In this document: positions 26,277 to 45,923 of the stretch, in pieces
Layout of the letters: the number at the start of each line of letters is the position of its first letter
Numbering within the stretch: position 1 is the stretch's first letter
Source: Mytilus galloprovincialis
Taxonomy: Eukaryota; Mollusca; Bivalvia; Mytilida; Mytilidae
Direction: 5' to 3'
DNA length: 64,000 nt
NCBI RefSeq assembly: GCF_965363235.1
Contig: NC_134842.1
Location: 5,421,112-5,485,111, forward strand
The notes under the pieces: generated by a model
The model's input: the letters and a program-made list of their open reading frames with translations, nothing else
Databases searched by the model: none
Told to the model about the DNA's origin: nothing
Position numbers and translations under genes: made by a program

Positions 26277-27325
26277 GCATAAGGCAGCTTAACTGCCTAA
26301 AAATTGACTATAAAGGACAATACTTCCTTTGTGGGTCAATTGACCATTTGGGTCATGTTGACTTAATTTTAGGTCTTACTTAGCTGTACTTTATTGCTGT
26401 TTACAGTTTATCTCTATCTATAAAAATATCCAAGATAATAACAACAGCAAAATTTCCTTAAAATTACCAATTCAGGGGCAACAACCCAACAACGGGTTGT
26501 CTGATTCATCTGAAAATTTCAGGGCAGATAGATCTTGACCTGATAAACAATTTTACCCATTGTCAGATTTGCTCTAAATGCTTTGGTTTTCAGTTATAAG
26601 CCAAACACTGCATTTTACCCTTATGTTCTATTTTTATCCATGGCGGCCATCTTGGTTGGTTGTCCGGTTCAACGGGCACATTTTTTACACTACATACCCC
26701 AAAGATGATTGTGGCCAAGTTTGGATTAATTTGGCCCAGTAATTTCAGAGGAGAAGAAATTTGTAAAAGATTACTAAGATTTACGAAAAATGGTTAAAAA
26801 TTGACTATAAAGGGCAATAACTCCTAAAGGGGTCAATTGACCATTTCGGTCATATCGACTTGTTTGTAAATCTTACTTTGCTGAACATTATTGCAGTTTA
26901 CAGTTTATCTGTATCTATAATAATATTCAAGATAATAACCAAAAACAGCAAAATTTCCTTAAAATTACCAATTCAGGGGCAGCAACCTAACAACAGGTTG
27001 TCCGATTCATCTGAAAATTTCGCGGCAGATAGTTCTTGACCTGATAAACAATTTTACCCCCCCCCCCCCCCATATCAGATTTGCTTTAAATGCTTTGGTT
27101 TATTTAGTTATAAGCCAAAAACTGCATTTTACCCCTATGTTCTATTTTTAGCCATGATGGCCATCTTGGTTGGTTGGCCGGGTCACCGGACACAATTTTT
27201 AAACTAGATACCCCAATAATGAGTGTTGCCAAGTTTGGTTTAATTTCGCCTAGTAGTTTCAGAGAAGATTTTTGCAAAAGTTAACAGACGACGCCGGACG
27301 CAAAGTGATGAGAAAAGCTCACCTG
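26277..27325 (-). repeat. Family B tandem-monomer element, interrupted
   Basis: About two monomers: TTCAGGGGCA at 26471 and TTCAGGGGCAG at 26972, 501 bp apart. A C-run (about 27057-27071) interrupts the second. A GACGACGCCGGACGC tract (27287-27302) and the hairpin arm AGCTCACCTG (27317-27325) follow. The other hairpin arm lies at 32267-32293, beyond the Polinton-like insertion. It matches the reverse complement of 55075-57473. Confidence 0.8.
27320..27325. repeat. Left target-site duplication CACCTG
   Basis: CACCTG directly abuts the element's first bases AGTAGTAGGG. The same six bases follow its last base at 32267-32272. Confidence 0.85.
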
Positions 27326-27947
27326 AGTAGTAGGGAGTGATCAGTTTTAAGTGAGGAAAAAAGGTAGGCACGCTGGCACGGATAAATATGGTCATGCCCC
27401 TCCCACCGAAAAAAGGTAGGCACGCTGGCACGGATAAATATGGTCATGCCCCTCCCACCGAAAAAAGGTAGGCACGCTGGCACGGATAAATATGGTCATG
27501 ACCCTCCCTCCCTGTCAATCAACAGAAGTCATGACCTTTCGTTTCGATTACACATAAACTTATTTGGTCATAACGATCTGTGAAAAATCTATACATTCAC
27601 CATTGTATCCAAATAAGTTCATCGGGTGAGGCTGAAAAGATAGTGTTACCTCCTCGAACAACATTTGCCTGGTCATATAATCAAATTTGGATTCAGATCG
27701 ACTTATATATATTTGAACCTGGTCATGCCCCTCCCTCCCTATCAATCAACAGAAGTCATGACCTTTCGTTTCGATTACACATAAACTTATTTGGTCATAA
27801 CGATCTGTGAAAAATCTATACATTCACACGTTGTATCCAAATAAGTTCATCGGGTGATGCTGAAAAGATAGTGTTACCTCCTCGAACAACATTTGCCTGG
27901 TCATATAATCAAATTTGGATTCAGATCGACTACGTCATCGTGTAAAA
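27326..27947. repeat. Left terminal inverted repeat, 622 bp
   Basis: It contains three 52-bp subrepeats (GGTAGGCACGCTGGCACGG at 27363, 27415, 27467). Two copies of a ~230-bp block follow (GTCAATCAACAGAAGTCATG at about 27513; ATCAATCAACAG at 27740). The match to the right end stops after CGTCATCGTGTAAAA. Short open frames here are by-products. Confidence 0.85.
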
Positions 27948-27956
27948 TCACGTGAT
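27947..27956. promoter_or_regulatory. ATCACGTGAT palindrome inside the left TIR edge
   Basis: This 10-bp palindrome with an E-box core recurs at 30926-30935 next to the TATA box of the small gene. A shared regulatory site is possible but speculative. Confidence 0.25.
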
Positions 27957-28084
27957 CGTATCGAGGAACTCTGATACAAAAAAGGGAAGCAACTCTTCAT
28001 GATGTGAACATCAATCACCGATTAATCGTATCGTGTTCGGGGCAAATAGAAAAAATACCAACGCAGATGTCAGGGTCATATATA

Positions 28085-28090
28085 TTTATT
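28085..28090 (-). terminator. Poly(A) signal after the ATPase-protease gene
   Basis: AATAAA on the minus strand lies four bases beyond the stop codon at 28097-28095, a very compact 3' end typical of viral genes. Confidence 0.5.
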
Positions 28091-28094
28091 ACAT

Positions 28095-29594
28095 TCATTC
28101 GTACAATGCAAGCAGTTTGTCGTCGTTACTCATCAAGTCTCTAGACGAAAAATCTTTCACAATGTCTTCCATGCTAATGTTTCTATATCTCATCTTCACG
28201 AAATGTACACAATAGATTCCGCACGTATCGGATGATCCCGGTTGCACTTGAGTCGTACTGAATCTGTATTGAGGTCCATTGGCGATGAGCACGTTCATGA
28301 AGCGACGATGGTAATACTCCGGAGAACGTCCGAACGAATCGAAGAATTCGACGGGTCCCTCTCGCGGGAAGTGGAACGCCAACCAGTGAATGCCCTTGCC
28401 GTCGCAGTCGTCCGTGTTGACGACGAAACTGCGGGGCCTGTTCGAGACTTCATCCGGCAGTGCATCGGCACAGCACACGGTCGCCGGCAGGTCTTCGAGA
28501 TAACACTCCAGTTCGTATCCGTAGGTTCCCTCCACGCCGTCGTCTTCCGTTCTGCATCGTTTGGCGGATGGTTCGTCGCCACAGTCCCTCTCTTGATGGA
28601 TCTCGAGTCCCCGGGCGTGCGCAAATACCAGTCCGCATGCGCGGCAAGCCATCAGGTCCGATTCGCTTCCGACGTCTTCTTCTCCGAATTCCATGGTGTT
28701 CGATTCGCTTCCGGTGGAATCGACGTCTTCGTCCTCGGCTTCGGCGTCGTCCTCGCTTCCGCCCAAGACGTCGCTACGTAATCTCAAGTGTTCGGGTGTA
28801 GCGGCCTTCAGATCCACCAGAAGGTATCCGAAGGGTCTCCTCGTGGCCTCTCGGAACGTTTGCATCAAGTGGTGTCTCTGACTCGGATACATCTGTCTAC
28901 CTAGCGTGGCGACGGGCTGGCGATCGACTGGATTGTCGAAGAGGACCAGGTAGTGACAGTTTCTCCTCTGAGTCGGATCCTTCCCGAAATACAGGTTCTG
29001 ATTCACAGCTACCACCGACAGGTTACGATGATGCGATCCTTCCGTGAACAAGTCGTTGATGCGACGGTCTTTGGCCGAGGTCGACATCAGGTCGTCCAGC
29101 ACGAGTAAGTTTCTGGTCCGTGCATCGAAGAAGTGATCGGCTTCCAACTCGGTCGGGATACCGCGAACGAATTCCACGGTGGGCACCACCGTCTTTCGAA
29201 TCTCGTCGTAGAGGGGTTGCCATCGTCGGTACAGCCAGACGATCCTCTCCGGTACCGGGTTGCACGTGGATCTTCGCAATGCTTCCTTCACGAAAAACGT
29301 CTTGCCGCAGGAGGTCGGACCGGAGACGATCATGGTGAACGGGTGTTGAAAACGAAAACTTTCTTGCGTCGCATTTTGCGGTGGCGGCGGCGGCGGTGGC
29401 GGCGGCGGTGGCGGCGGCGGTGGCGGCGGCGGTGGTGGTACGTCAGTACCATGCTTATTTCGATGATGCCTCAACATGACGTCTCTTCTCGAAAACATTC
29501 TTTGACAGCTAGGACACTCCATCCTCACTTCAAGGGTGGAACTTTCCCTCTTATAACTTTTGTCGGAAATGAAGCAAGCAGAACACGTGATCAT
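28095..29594 (-). CDS. Zinc finger-ATPase-protease fusion protein, 499 aa
   Basis: Domains in order: a C2H2 finger (C27, C30, H43/H44, H48); 20 consecutive prolines (53-72); a P-loop ATPase with Walker A GPTSCGKT (92-99) and Walker B LLVLDD (163-168), followed by NQNLYFGKDPTQRRNCHYLV, continuing to about 275. Then comes an acidic Ser/Asp/Glu linker (280-313), a second C2HC finger (C317, C320, H333, C338), and a cysteine-protease domain with H403 (IHWLAF), D419 (EFFDSFG), Q451 and C458 (DTCGIYC), in the His-Asp/Glu-Gln-Cys order of adenain/Ulp1 proteases. Family knowledge: the ATPase packages DNA and the protease matures capsid proteins in Polintons and adintoviruses. Here both are one open frame with all key residues intact. 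ATG at 29594 overlaps the upstream gene by 44 bp. Host-like fusion or deletion between two genes are both possible origins. Confidence 0.85.
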   Translation of the reverse strand: MITCSACFISDKSYKRESSTLEVRMECPSCQRMFSRRDVMLRHHRNKHGTDVPPPPPPPPPPPPPPPPPPPPQNATQESFRFQHPFTMIVSGPTSCGKTFFVKEALRRSTCNPVPERIVWLYRRWQPLYDEIRKTVVPTVEFVRGIPTELEADHFFDARTRNLLVLDDLMSTSAKDRRINDLFTEGSHHRNLSVVAVNQNLYFGKDPTQRRNCHYLVLFDNPVDRQPVATLGRQMYPSQRHHLMQTFREATRRPFGYLLVDLKAATPEHLRLRSDVLGGSEDDAEAEDEDVDSTGSESNTMEFGEEDVGSESDLMACRACGLVFAHARGLEIHQERDCGDEPSAKRCRTEDDGVEGTYGYELECYLEDLPATVCCADALPDEVSNRPRSFVVNTDDCDGKGIHWLAFHFPREGPVEFFDSFGRSPEYYHRRFMNVLIANGPQYRFSTTQVQPGSSDTCGIYCVHFVKMRYRNISMEDIVKDFSSRDLMSNDDKLLALYE

Positions 29595-29973
29595 CTTTGC
29601 AACGGCACACGCGAAGTCGATCGTCTCTCAAGGTGATTTCCAATATTTCCATCTCGCCTCCCCTCGACGCGAGGTAGAGCGGTCTCTCGAAAATTATCTC
29701 CGTGGTCTCTTCTTTTCTGATGGCTACGGATTGAAGCAGTGGCAGGTAAGTGTCTCTGACGTAAGATTCATCCCTTACCAGATCGCAACACACGTACATC
29801 CTCTGCGTAGACGTTTCAAAAGCCGGTACAAAGGTCATCTCCAACAGAGCACACTCCCACGTTCCTTTCATTAAGTGTGATCTAGGTAAACGTATTCTGA
29901 ACTGTCCTCCCCTATTCTGGGGAAAAAGTTGGAGCGAGTCTCCACTATTGACGAATAAGTAAAACTCGTCCAT
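29551..29973 (-). CDS. Penton/minor-capsid-like candidate, 140 aa
   Basis: Starts MDEFYLFVNSGDSLQLFPQN, with NRGGQFRIRLP, GTWECALLEM, MYVCCDLVRD, ERPLYL and a C-terminal LLHFRQKL. This beta-rich pattern (FPxN, FxxxLP, GxWEVAL, YVYCDLV, LHFR) matches a protein I recall beside packaging ATPases in invertebrate Maverick/adintovirus-type loci. The structural role as a penton or minor capsid jelly-roll is inference. The frame overlaps the start of the ATPase-protease gene in a different frame, as in compact viral genomes. No TATA box was seen directly upstream; 29974-30060 holds a GCC-repeat tract and T-runs. It is a complete frame of about the size of the family's N-terminal region. Confidence 0.6.
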   Translation of the reverse strand: MDEFYLFVNSGDSLQLFPQNRGGQFRIRLPRSHLMKGTWECALLEMTFVPAFETSTQRMYVCCDLVRDESYVRDTYLPLLQSVAIRKEETTEIIFERPLYLASRGGEMEILEITLRDDRLRVCRCKDDHVFCLLHFRQKL

Positions 29974-30449
29974 GGTTTTGATTAAGCATTCGATCCTCTT
30001 CCTCTTATATCCATCGCCGCCGCCGCCGACGCCGCCACGGCATGACCATGTTTTTTTTTGTTTTTTTTTTTATACAAGTAACCATACATTTCATATGTCT
30101 CGAATGAGTCCCGAAGTTCGATTAAAACCACATAACACCATGCAAAGATTTTTTTTTGTCAACAATAAATGTATATTGTGTATAATAAAATGTATATTGT
30201 GTATGTTTCATATTGTCGTGCATCTGGCCTGATGGAAAGTCGAAAACTACTTTTCGTCGTTATCTCCCCTCCCTTCCTTGTCATAACGAAAAATAGTTCT
30301 CGACTTTCCAGTCTACAATAAATAATAGGAAATGAATGAAAGCAAATTAGACACTAAATATTTATTAACATTAGTTACAAATTGAAAAAAAAAAAAAAAT
30401 ACCCAGAAACATCAGCTATATATTATTAATCCATAAATAATTAGCAATG
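29974..30449. other. Spacer between element genes
   Basis: It holds a GCC-repeat tract (30010-30035), poly-T runs, a TGTATATTGTGTA duplication and the hairpin at 30233-30310. The plus-strand open frame at 29972-30232 is unsupported. Confidence 0.5.
30233..30310. repeat. Intergenic hairpin inside the element
   Basis: TGGAAAGTCGAAAACTACTT and its continuation pair with the segment ending AAAAATAGTTCTCGACTTTCC, giving arms of ~30 bp with few mismatches. It sits between the 3' end of the 137-residue gene and the 5' side of the penton-like gene, so it could act in termination, packaging or replication. Confidence 0.7.
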
Positions 30450-30863
30450 TTAATTTGTAAAGCGGTCACCAAGTTGGATTATTTTCTTTGTCATTTCATA
30501 GAATCCATCTTTGTCTGGTAAATTATTTTCTCGCCATTCACAGTTTTGTAAAAGGTTTATAAATGTATTTTTCAACTCCAATGATATGTCTGTAAGTTTA
30601 GTGTCCCTTTTCCACAATTCTAAGAGTTCTTCGCAATCAACATTTTCCAAGGCATCGTCGAAGTATATATTCAGTTGTTCTAACTCGGACATCATGAGAC
30701 AGGAATGTTTTCTCTGACTGGGATGATTGTTTCTACATCCAAAACAATGTTTTCTGGTTAAAAGTCTGACTTCTTCTTCCACTTTTCTAGCATATAAGAA
30801 CAAGTATATATCAATCGTCATTCGAATCTCTTTACCCTCAGTTATGGTTTGTGTTGATTCCAT
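30450..30863 (-). CDS. Small Cys/His protein of the element, 137 aa
   Basis: A complete frame with a C40-x2-C43-x3-H47-x5-H53-x1-C55 cluster (KHCFGCRNNHPSQRKHSC), likely zinc-binding. A mostly helical, acidic C-terminal half follows (NIYFDDALENVDCEELLELW). I recall the C-GC-PSQ-H-C pattern from uncharacterised proteins in aquatic invertebrates and related DNA elements but know no function. The start is chosen at 30863 because a TATAAA-type box lies ~46 bp upstream (30916-30909) and an earlier start would fall in it. Codons are AT-rich, unlike the GC-rich ATPase-protease and penton-like genes. Confidence 0.65.
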   Translation of the reverse strand: MESTQTITEGKEIRMTIDIYLFLYARKVEEEVRLLTRKHCFGCRNNHPSQRKHSCLMMSELEQLNIYFDDALENVDCEELLELWKRDTKLTDISLELKNTFINLLQNCEWRENNLPDKDGFYEMTKKIIQLGDRFTN

Positions 30864-30908
30864 CTCGATAGTTTATGAAGACTCTGTGAACGTTGGATTC
30901 CAACGCTG

Positions 30909-30935
30909 TTTATAAAGGGTATTTGATCACGTGAT
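30909..30935 (-). promoter_or_regulatory. TATA box and ATCACGTGAT palindrome
   Basis: TTTATAAA (30909-30916) and the palindrome (30926-30935) lie upstream of the 137-residue gene on the minus strand. The spacing to ATG at 30863 suits a short 5'UTR. Confidence 0.5.
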
Positions 30936-30973
30936 GATGTGTGGTTTGATTGGCTTAACAACACTGGCAGATG

Positions 30974-31303
30974 TCAAAATCGGGAATTTGATGTGGTAGC
31001 GAAGAGATAATTGGGTTCCCATTTTAAATGTTCTGTTTGTATACAGTCGTTTTTTTTTTTTTTTTGTCTAAGCCAGTAGTGAAGTTCCATTTTTTGAACG
31101 ACTAAAACACATTCTTGGTAAATGAAAGCGATTAGAAACGACCACTGGGTGAAATGAAAACGTTCTAAAACGTAATGGAAATTACACGAGACTGGGACCA
31201 TTTTCCCGTTAACTTTTAAATTTGATACATAATTTATTGTAAAATAATATTGATGATGAAAGTGATTCCTTTGAGGATTTGATATAATTATCTCGCTGTG
31301 CAC
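30974..31303 (-). CDS. Weak open frame of 109 aa
   Basis: An uninterrupted frame within the element, with aromatic-rich codons (YYFTINYVSNLKVNGK) and an A-run giving QKKKKND. No family recognised and no promoter seen. It could be the remnant of a longer element gene or chance. Listed because it fills the space between the TATA region and the right arm. Confidence 0.2.
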   Translation of the reverse strand: MHSEIIISNPQRNHFHHQYYFTINYVSNLKVNGKMVPVSCNFHYVLERFHFTQWSFLIAFIYQECVLVVQKMELHYWLRQKKKKNDCIQTEHLKWEPNYLFATTSNSRF

Positions 31304-31640
31304 TTATGTCCATCTGGTATGAATTTAAAAGTGTGTGTGTAAGAATAACAATAAATAATTATTATTTACAGGGATATAATAAATGTCATTTATCATAACA
31401 TTGCGATTTTAATAAATGAGAAACTCACGCATCTCAAATAAAAGTAGGCTTCATTGAACAATAATTGTATTTAGCAGGAAAGTTCTGTGTATCTAATTAG
31501 TCACTCGAGTTATCTTTGTTATAAATCAACAAAGATGTGAAATTCAATCCCCAGACATATATATACACACTGATCAATGTATCAAAAGATAAGACTAATG
31601 CGATATGTATCGGTCAGTCTTCTAACATATGTGTGATTTT
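31304..31640. other. Non-coding right part of the element
   Basis: AT-rich with a GTGTGTGTG scrap. Nothing else recognised. Confidence 0.4.
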
Positions 31641-31645
31641 TCAAT

Positions 31646-31653
31646 TATAAAAG
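31646..31653 (+). promoter_or_regulatory. TATA box on the plus strand
   Basis: CAATTATAAAAGGAAGCCAGC, a strong pol II TATA match, pointing towards the right end of the element. Confidence 0.45.
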
Positions 31654-31714
31654 GAAGCCAGCTTTATGATACAGCAAGACGTACACGCGTGCATTTCTTG
31701 TTGATTGGAATATA

Positions 31715-31740
31715 ATGACTACAAGCGACGTTCGGATAAA
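31715..31740 (+). CDS. Candidate orphan first exon
   Basis: ATG at 31715, 62-69 bp after the TATA box, opens MTTSDVRI plus two bases before a consensus donor (AAA/GTAAGTAAG at 31740/31741). The direction is opposite to all other element genes and outward. Only ~520 bp remain to the element's end and no acceptor exon is evident. It may be the first exon of a gene lost by internal deletion. Confidence 0.3.
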
Positions 31741-31923
31741 GTAAGTAAGTTTGTTTTCATTTATGTATAATTTAATTATTTATTTGATCATTTGTTTTAA
31801 TTGCAACGCATATTATTCATATATTTACTTTTGTTATAAAAACTAATATAATGGCATGACGCTCAAATCTCGAGGTTCAAATATATATAAGTCGATCTGA
31901 ATCCAAATTTGATCAATCTATTC

Positions 31924-32266
31924 TTTTACACGATGACGTAGTCGATCTGAATCCAAATTTAATTATATGACCAGGCAAATGTTGTTCGAGGAGGTAACAC
32001 TATCTTTTCAGCCTCACCCGATGAACTTATTTGGATACAACGTGTGAATGTATAGATTTTTCACAGATCGTTATGACCAAATAAGTTTATGTGTAATCGA
32101 AACGAAAGGTCATGACTTCTGTTGATTGACAGGGAGGAAGGGGCAGGACCATATTTATCCGTGCCAGCGTGCCTACCTTTTTTCGGTGGGAGGGGCATGA
32201 CCATATTTATCCGTGCCAGCGTGCCTACCTTTTTTCCTCACTTAAAACTGATCACTCCCTACTACT
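31924..32266. repeat. Right terminal inverted repeat, 343 bp
   Basis: Reverse complement of the left end, but with two rather than three 52-bp subrepeats and one rather than two ~230-bp blocks. Just inside it (about 31880-31912), a second copy of GTCGATCTGAATCCAAATTT matches the left arm's internal junction. Confidence 0.85.
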
Positions 32267-32293
32267 CACCTGGTTCAGGCCAGGTGAGCTAAA
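32267..32293. repeat. Right target duplication and rest of the split host hairpin
   Basis: CACCTG (32267-32272) repeats the left duplication. It continues as GTTCAGGCCAGGTGAGCTAA. Without the insertion, the site reads as a near-perfect palindrome with AGCTCACCTG and CAGGTGAGCT arms. Confidence 0.8.
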
Positions 32294-32687: not shown

Positions 32688-32830
32688 CAGTTACTGCACA
32701 GGGGCTTGTTACAATTGCCGGGTTTACTATCTAGATAGTAGATAGTAAACCCGGCAATTGTAAATGTTTTTTTTACGGGGTTCGTAGATAGTAAACCCGG
32801 CAATTCTAACAAGCCCCTGTGGTTACTGTA
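32688..32830. repeat. Nested foldback hairpin
   Basis: ACAGTTACTGCACAGGGGCT..CTATCTA on the left is mirrored by TAGATAGTAAACCCGGCAAT..ACTGT on the right. A third TAGATAGTAAACCCGGCAAT copy lies between (about 32739). Confidence 0.8.
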
Positions 32831-36639: not shown

Positions 36640-37440
36640 GGCAAAAGATACCAAGGGACAATCAAACTCTGAAGTCGAAAAATAAACTGACAATGCCATA
36701 GCAAAATTAAACTGACAATACCATAGCAAAATTAAACTGACAACGCCATAGCAAAAATAAACTGACAACGTCATAGCAAAATTAAACTGACAACGCCATA
36801 GCAAAAATAAACTGACAACGTCATAGCAAAATTAAACTGACAACCCCATGGCAAAAATAAACTGACAACCCCATAGCAAAATTAAACTGACAACCCCATG
36901 GCAAAATTAAACTGACAACCCCTTAGCAAAATTAAACTGACAACCCCATGGAAAAAATAAACTGACAACCCCATGGCAAAATTAAACTGACAATCCCATG
37001 GCAAAAATAAACTGAAAACCCCATGGCAAAATTAAACTGACAACCCCATAGCAAAATAAACTGACAACCCTATAGCAAAATAAACTGACAACCCCATGGC
37101 AAAAATAAACTGACAACTGCATAGCAAAATAAACTGACAACCCCATGGCAAAAATAAACTGACAACTGCATAGCAAAATAAACTGACAACCCTATAGCAA
37201 AATAAACTGACAACCCCATGGCAAAAATAATCTGACAACCCCATAGCAAAATAAACTGACAACCCCATAGCAAAATAAACTGACAACCCCATGGTAAAAA
37301 TAAACTGACAAACCCATAGCAAAAAAAGAAAAAGACCACAAGACAAACAACAGAACATAAAATGCAACATAGAAAACCAAAGACAGGGAAACACAAACCC
37401 CACCAAAAACGAGAGTAACCTCAGGTGCTCCAGAAGGGTA
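36640..37440 (-). repeat. 26-bp minisatellite inside a retroelement 3' region
   Basis: About 26 units of AAACTGACAACCCCATGGCA plus AAAAT fill 36680-37320. The flanks (GATACCAAGGGACAATCAAA; then GACAAACAACAGAACATAAA, CTCAGGTGCTCCAGAAGGGT) match the retroelement at 61820-62060, where the unit occurs once. Long minus frames are repeat by-products. Confidence 0.85.
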
Positions 37441-45468: not shown

Positions 45469-45923
45469 TGGTCTGAGACCACAATTGTTGTCCCTTGATT
45501 TTTGTTGTCCACGAATATAGTCCCTAGTGTTGACAGTGGGTTACTTGCCATTTATTTTCATACCCCTTCCCAATTTATTTCTCCATGTTTAAGGCCTCAA
45601 TTTGCAAGTAGGAGGGTGAAATTACACTTTAAAAAAATTTGGGTCCAGAATTTTAAAGGAAAGTAGTGATTTGGTCCAGCTGGAAAAGGTTAAAAATTAG
45701 CACTTCGGAAGCTGTCAAAAGATTTCAAGACGCCCTAAACATAAAAGTGTCCATATTTTGAGTTAGAGCCGATGAAGTTTTCTATAATTTTGATATAATT
45801 TGTCCCAAAATTAGTACAACACACTGTAAAAATTTCATTGAGAAAGCGCAGGTGGGATATTTTTAATTTTCATTTATGTTCTAAAAGAAATGCACTAGGA
45901 AATAATTGTGGTCTCAGACCACC
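45469..45923. mobile_element. 455-bp TIR element, TGGTCTGAGACC ends
   Basis: TGGTCTGAGACCACAATTGT at the left and AATAATTGTGGTCTCAGACC at the right are inverted. The inner part of each end is itself palindromic (GGTCTGAGACC). No coding content. Confidence 0.65.

What the first reader, a model, noticed from the sequence alone, without database searches (positions are those of the whole stretch)
27326..32266. Compact 4.9-kb Polinton-like element with intact termini
AG..CT ends, long inverted repeats and an exact 6-bp CACCTG duplication show a clean insertion. The element carries virus-type morphogenesis genes but no polymerase, integrase or recognisable major capsid gene. Elements of this family are normally 15-20 kb. 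A small element that keeps packaging and protease functions while losing replication and integration genes would be an unusual parasite, or a satellite of larger Polintons.
Basis: partly seen in the sequence, partly recalled or inferred. Interest (0 to 1): 0.85.

Follow-up and report, generated by a model that had tools for sequence, protein, structure and literature searches.

The report
Compact Polinton satellites without capsid gene
A mussel genome carries a family of small virus-derived elements, some of which share their ends with a full-size Polinton, that keep only a few virion-assembly genes, which suggests that they travel as parasites of larger relatives.

The parts
27320..27325 (.). 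left target-site duplication CACCTG
27326..27947 (.). left terminal inverted repeat: 30-nt terminus, three 52-bp units, about 227-bp block present twice
28095..29594 (-). 499-aa fusion: C2H2 zinc finger + poly-Pro linker + A32/FtsK-type packaging ATPase (Walker A residues 92-99, Walker B 163-168) + second C2H2 motif (317) + adenain-type cysteine protease (H403, D419, Q451, C458 by motif; roles recalled)
   Evidence: supported fusion-bearing clade
29551..29973 (-). 140-aa penton (single jelly-roll minor capsid protein), overlapping the fusion ORF by 44 nt in another frame
   Evidence: (pLDDT 88, pTM 0.84)
30450..30863 (-). 137-aa helical protein with HCxGCxxxHxSQxxHxCLM motif, related to small proteins in long Polintons of the same genome; function unknown
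31924..32266 (.). right terminal inverted repeat (two 52-bp units)
32267..32272 (.). right target-site duplication CACCTG

Best explanation
The element is one integrated copy of an established, diversified lineage of compact Polinton satellites. SHOWN: multi-copy insertion with Polinton-type ends and 6-bp duplications; a conserved cassette penton + ZnF-ATPase-protease fusion; no match to polymerase, integrase or capsid-candidate probes in the nine elements read; a full-length Polinton with the same terminal repeats as lineage A in the same genome. INFERRED: its linear genome is replicated from the shared ends by a protein-primed polymerase of a full-length relative, inserted by that relative's integrase, and packaged into a shell made of the relative's major capsid protein. 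The satellite brings its own vertex protein, packaging motor and maturation protease, so that helper shells take up satellite rather than helper DNA. It would work like capsid-hijacking phage satellites, with the motor, vertex and protease as the parts that confer specificity.
Against: No transcripts, particles or extrachromosomal DNA examined. Selection among the near-identical A copies alone is weak: fusion p 0.14 (rate ratio 0.62, broken copies included, linker skipped), penton p 0.03, 137-aa 0 synonymous against 3 non-synonymous, pooled p 0.053; open A copies pairwise give 0.17-0.33 on few changes. So the A-B signal could predate the short form; the region between ATPase and protease is little constrained even there (0.58-0.67). 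Three of nine fusion genes are broken. The only complete long element with these ends found has a stop in PolB; the one C11 copy followed up is truncated. The capsid label of the 420-aa ORF rests on size and position, not on a library hit. Only 9 of 65 fusion loci were read through; a long Polinton with the fusion may exist. A helper with the ends of lineages B or C was not found: the TIR-B search stayed unanswered and none was run for C.
Confidence: 0.6

Rival explanations
1. Ordinary non-autonomous transposon: a deletion derivative of an unsampled long Polinton that carried the fused gene, amplified in trans by its ends; the ORFs are passengers that still look intact because the copies are young.
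For: A copies are young (0.2-1.2% noncoding divergence); selection among A copies is weak; three of nine fusion genes are broken; related ZnF-ATPases without protease are predicted in one protein with an rve integrase in Mya (P0099) and lie near what looks by eye like a PolB fragment in a Bathymodiolus contig.
Against: Three lineages 51-68% identical in the fusion keep the same two genes and compact size; dN/dS 0.15-0.24 between A and B; no long element with the fusion among the nine fusion loci read.
Confidence: 0.27
2. Genome segment of a multipartite Polinton: shell and replication genes on one linear segment, vertex, motor and protease on the other, both with the same ends.
For: Shared TIR between a short and a long element; complementary gene sets in part.
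Against: The long partner has its own penton, protease and ATPase, so it does not need the short one.
Confidence: 0.06
3. Host-beneficial interference element: endogenous copies make penton, ATPase and protease that poison assembly of invading Polintons, and the genes are kept for that reason.
For: Partial virion gene set kept without shell gene; virophage-type protection of hosts is known (PMC10945749, title and start of abstract seen in the listing).
Against: Mobile, multi-copy, young and insertion-site diverse copies fit selfish spread better; no sign of one fixed domesticated locus.
Confidence: 0.07

Closest known systems
Polintons/Mavericks (polintoviruses) and adintoviruses
   Same: AGT...ACT ends, long TIRs, 6-bp duplications (family traits recalled); penton, A32-type ATPase and adenain-type protease; best predicted-structure match of the penton is a Drosophila-associated adintovirus protein
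   Different: 4-5 kb instead of 15-20 kb; no PolB, integrase or capsid candidate found; ATPase and protease fused behind a C2H2 finger
Virophages (Sputnik, mavirus)
   Different: virophages encode their own major capsid protein (PMC11071308, passages); none was found in this lineage
Capsid-hijacking phage satellites (SaPI/PICI, P4; recalled) and the Mulch/Flayer satellites (PMC10690885, abstract and outline)
   Same: satellite carries packaging or morphogenesis genes and depends on a helper for others
   Different: prokaryotic tailed-phage systems (recalled); helper dependence is established there, inferred here
Non-autonomous DNA transposons (MITE-like), foldback elements
   Same: moved in trans by shared ends; some family members are near-perfect inverted repeats
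   Different: conserved virion genes are retained across diverged lineages

Membership tests
Polinton/Maverick | AGT...ACT termini with TIRs and 6-bp target duplication | tested here: met
   window element; eight of nine elements read (C14 lacks a matching duplication)
Polinton/Maverick | protein-primed PolB and rve integrase | tested here: not met
   no match in nine of nine compact elements (C14: 4,505 of about 4,655 bp); positive controls hit
Polinton/Maverick | penton, packaging ATPase, adenain-type protease | tested here: met
Polinton/Maverick | double jelly-roll major capsid protein | tested here: not met
   two capsid-candidate probes, no match in nine of nine; probes themselves are labelled by size and position only
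Virophage | own major capsid protein | tested here: not met
   same limit on the probes
Non-autonomous derivative moved by a full-length partner | shares terminal repeats with an element encoding the mobility genes | tested here: met
   C6 element, same TIR units, integrase open, PolB interrupted; shown for lineage A only
Simple internal-deletion derivative of that partner | internal sequence identical to parts of the partner | tested here: not met
   at nucleotide level only the TIRs match; protein identity 39-48%
Capsid-hijacking satellite | packaged in particles built from helper shell protein | not testable with these tools
   needs particles or nuclease-protected DNA
Capsid-hijacking satellite | own packaging genes kept by selection while in satellite form | tested here: inconclusive
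   A-B dN/dS 0.24, within-A pooled p 0.053

The most novel reading that the evidence does not exclude
An old, diversified lineage of animal-genome satellites that lack shell, polymerase and integrase genes but encode their own vertex protein plus a one-chain packaging motor-protease, hijack Polinton shells, swap cassettes between ends, and often exist as foldback genomes with the motor-protease gene in both arms: an independent animal counterpart of capsid-hijacking phage islands.
Probability: 0.42. Interest if true: 0.88.

Novelty: new variant of a known kind. Interest (0 to 1): 0.7.

Why it matters
Whether animal Polintons still make infectious particles is an open question; a parasite that keeps only vertex, motor and protease genes under selection would be indirect evidence that they do or recently did. 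It would extend satellite hyperparasitism with borrowed shells to animal double-jelly-roll-type elements, and gives a concrete marker (4-5 kb TIR-bounded DNA with a penton/ATPase-protease cassette) to look for in bivalve sequence data.

Tried and rejected
Simple deletion of the TIR-sharing Polinton: rejected for C6. Chance TIR or TSD: rejected. Lone insertion: rejected. Extra genes in the 6.9-kb C7 copy: it is a nested 2.2-kb insertion with two identical 456-bp LTR-like repeats. Viral contigs: three scans, no relative; a further alignment could not be scanned. Genome contigs: one Bathymodiolus-derived contig with degraded frames. PHROGs: best E 0.02, a zinc-finger stretch. The 137-aa model (pLDDT 80) has no match below E 1 in the viral structure library; it was not compared with the PDB; function stays open. 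Foldseek alone gives one PDB match of the penton at E below 0.001 (PBCV-1), followed by other beta folds from E 0.0019; the penton call rests on the second look, the viral library and gene position. TIR homogenisation as a general sign of replication: only the outer ~31 nt are symmetrical within elements (6 of 6); inner TIR differences within elements (1.19%, 5 pairs) equal those between (1.30%, 61 pairs), so I do not rest the model on it. Tree: 107 of the 120 listed proteins were used; 13 with matches under 180 residues were dropped, among them several protease-bearing ones. Capsid co-localisation across the genome could not be tested: the search stayed unanswered. Print searches on short, non-autonomous or satellite Polintons; no described counterpart in the listings; the phrases 'non-autonomous/nonautonomous Polinton/Maverick' gave no paper (3 papers, all by 'Polinton-derived'). 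Most subscription literature and Repbase were not searchable.
Full report
WHAT IS THERE. The window lies in an unnamed 1.385-Gb genome whose nearest named proteins are from Mytilus mussels. The element at 27326-32266 begins AGTAGTAGGG and ends CCCTACTACT, is flanked by CACCTG on both sides, and has inverted ends built from a 30-nt terminus, 52-bp units and an inner block of about 227 bp that is doubled on the left. The three genes I accept lie on the minus strand: a 137-aa protein, a 140-aa protein and a 499-aa protein whose start overlaps the 140-aa gene. The 2-kb window with the last two has GC 0.52 against about 0.32 around it; GC at third codon positions is 0.64 (fusion), 0.54 (140-aa) and 0.34 (137-aa), so cassette and backbone differ in composition.

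PROTEINS. The 499-aa protein joins a C2H2 finger, a poly-proline linker, an A32-type ATPase, a second C2H2 motif and an adenain-type protease (PF00770 E 3.1e-5, above its cut-off; Pox_A32 E 0.0015 and Adeno_IVa2 E 0.024, both below theirs). Walker A and B and the protease His, Asp, Gln and Cys motifs are present (residue roles recalled from the adenain/Ulp1 clan). Of the 120 listed homologues (364 found), 15 match the protease part as well, some over a short stretch; other bivalve relatives have the ZnF-ATPase without it. In a tree of 111 ATPase rows, the seven fusion-labelled ones sit in one supported clade of 12 rows (97/95); the C6 long-element ATPase is far outside on a long branch. The 140-aa protein was modelled with 18 sequences (pLDDT 88, pTM 0.84). 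Second-look structural alignment gives PBCV-1 capsid chain 14.4, Sputnik 12.9, mavirus penton 12.7 and 12.4, adenovirus penton base 11.7 and capsid 11.3, then 7.4. PBCV-1's penton is a canonical eight-stranded jelly roll close to Sputnik's (PMC6344570, passages); that chain a6 of 6ncl is this penton I infer from length and fold. In Krupovic et al. [quoted passage not shown] the latter is its place in the C6 long element (penton - 98 aa - 420-aa capsid candidate). The 137-aa protein is modelled as helical and has relatives of 131 and 134 aa in two other long Polintons; the genome holds 62 matches.

COPIES. The right TIR finds 30 matches in the genome (a lower bound). Read through: window 4,941 bp (CACCTG); C12 4,815 (GTTGCA); C13 4,959 (AGTAAG); C5:38.47M 4,769 (CAAAAA); C7 6,881 with a nested 2.2-kb insertion (AATTGC). 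A second lineage B has other ends: C3:43.61M, 4,388 bp (TACGGT), and the chimaera C4:76.65M, 5,196 bp (TATACG), whose 137-aa gene is A-like (dS 0.013) while its cassette is B-like (dS about 0.7-1.0) and which holds a stretch of inner A-type TIR: modules recombine. C3:95.85M is a foldback: 4,061 bp, duplication GTTAGG, ends like lineage B, arms of 1,740 bp at 99.5% that each hold the ATPase-protease gene (one copy lacking its N-terminus), and a 581-bp centre with the penton. C14 is lineage C: about 4,655 bp, penton 53% and fusion 51% identical, no matching duplication found. Fusion open in 6 of 9 (window, C13, C7, C4, C3 foldback, C14), broken in C12, C5:38.47M and C3:43.61M; penton open in 9 of 9; the 137-aa gene is present in 7 of 9. 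No polymerase, integrase or capsid-candidate match in 9 of 9, with working controls.

GENOME VIEW. The fusion protein gives 101 matches; only 86 of 1,949 first-look candidates were scored, so this is a lower bound. I grouped 95 of the 101 (six short zinc-finger rows left out) into 65 loci; 20 hold the gene in both orientations within 8 kb, 18 of these within 3.9 kb; 16 of the 20 include the protease part, 4 do not. 7 of 65 have a 137-aa gene close by among the 15 of 62 matches compared. In four pairs one partner starts at the same place, codon 61-64 (C2:84.2M, C3:95.85M, C5:97.46M, C7:13.13M); this lies in the poly-proline linker, where alignments may be cut, but it suggests that one foldback form has multiplied. 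Only the C3:95.85M pair was read.

PARTNER. C6:17704163-17720820 (16,658 bp, duplication ATGGTG) shares the TIR units and encodes a TBP-like protein, integrase with chromodomain, penton, the 420-aa capsid candidate, separate protease and ATPase, a PolB interrupted by one in-frame stop, and a zinc-finger protein. Its penton, protease and ATPase are 43, 48 and 39% identical to those of the short element, and nothing but the TIRs matches at nucleotide level in any of its three pieces. Three C11 loci share its right end; the one followed further stops in PolB. A degraded long relative on C11 has the 137-aa gene beside PolB and an integrase fragment.

SELECTION. A against B (one B sequence): dN/dS 0.24 (fusion) and 0.16 (penton), with ATPase 0.15, protease 0.25 and the stretch between them 0.67; Fisher 7e-30 for the fusion. 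Among the five A copies: fusion 10 synonymous to 22 non-synonymous (p 0.14), penton 3 to 1 (p 0.03), 137-aa 0 to 3; pooled p 0.053. So the genes were under purifying selection over the deep history, but selection during the latest spread is not established.

TERMINI. In all six TIR-A elements with both ends read, the variable bases inside the terminus are the same at both ends, although they differ between elements except for one pair. By my arithmetic a random pairing of these twelve ends would do this with probability 3/10395. Inner TIR blocks show no such effect.

MECHANISM. Ends shared with a full-length element imply that polymerase and integrase can act in trans (inference). The retained genes are the ones around the vertex: penton, packaging motor, maturation protease. 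The missing one is the shell. The simplest selfish logic is a satellite that builds its own entry point and motor into borrowed shells. Foldback forms would be expected from snap-back copying of a linear protein-primed genome (recalled, not tested here).

NOVELTY. Print searches listed no compact, shell-less Polinton family; that is not proof of absence. Fragmented short Mavericks (consensus 600-4,500 bp, with only polymerase or integrase domains) are described as decayed copies in a midge (PMC8504770, passages), which differs in gene content and intactness. Some adintovirus genomes lack a detectable penton or have a truncated hexon (PMC11071296, passages), the nearest printed case of gaps in the virion set that I saw. 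I file this as a new variant of a known kind.

Noticed in passing
L035 3855-4361 (C6:17704854-17705360): TATA-binding-protein-like gene (PF00352, E 7.9e-22) near one end of the 16.7-kb Polinton; an unusual cargo.
   Followed up: partly
L044 2415-3243 (C5:64303914-64304742): Another long Polinton carries a BIR (IAP) domain ORF (E 9.4e-21) and a weak Macro-domain ORF (E 0.0011, below cut-off) just before its 131-aa and integrase genes.
   Followed up: partly
L045 980-2877 and 8004-9901 (C4:25.99M): Polinton whose 100%-identical inverted arms of at least 1,898 bp hold the 134-aa gene and the start of the ATPase gene.
   Followed up: no
L034 3622-5825; window 45470-45920: Nested 2.2-kb insertion with two identical 456-bp direct repeats (TRIM-like); a 93.6% relative of the repeat stands alone in the window.
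   Followed up: partly
C4:18.38M, C4:17.62M, C10:26.29M, C13:70.27M: ZnF-ATPase genes without a match to the protease part also occur as close inverted pairs; possibly a second foldback family.
   Followed up: no
L057 286 (C2:113.30M): An AGTAGTAG end lies about 0.6 kb before a single, intact 98% copy of the penton/fusion region, so a compact element without the 137-aa gene and without an inverted pair may stand here; its other end was not read.
   Followed up: partly
window 32709-32763: Perfect 25-bp inverted repeat with 5-nt loop just outside the element.
   Followed up: no
window 36678-37325: 25-bp tandem repeat, 26 copies.
   Followed up: no
P0026; L051: Bivalve-type Polinton sequence appears in symbiont genome records (Sedimenticola, Thiodubiliella), most likely host contamination.
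   Followed up: partly
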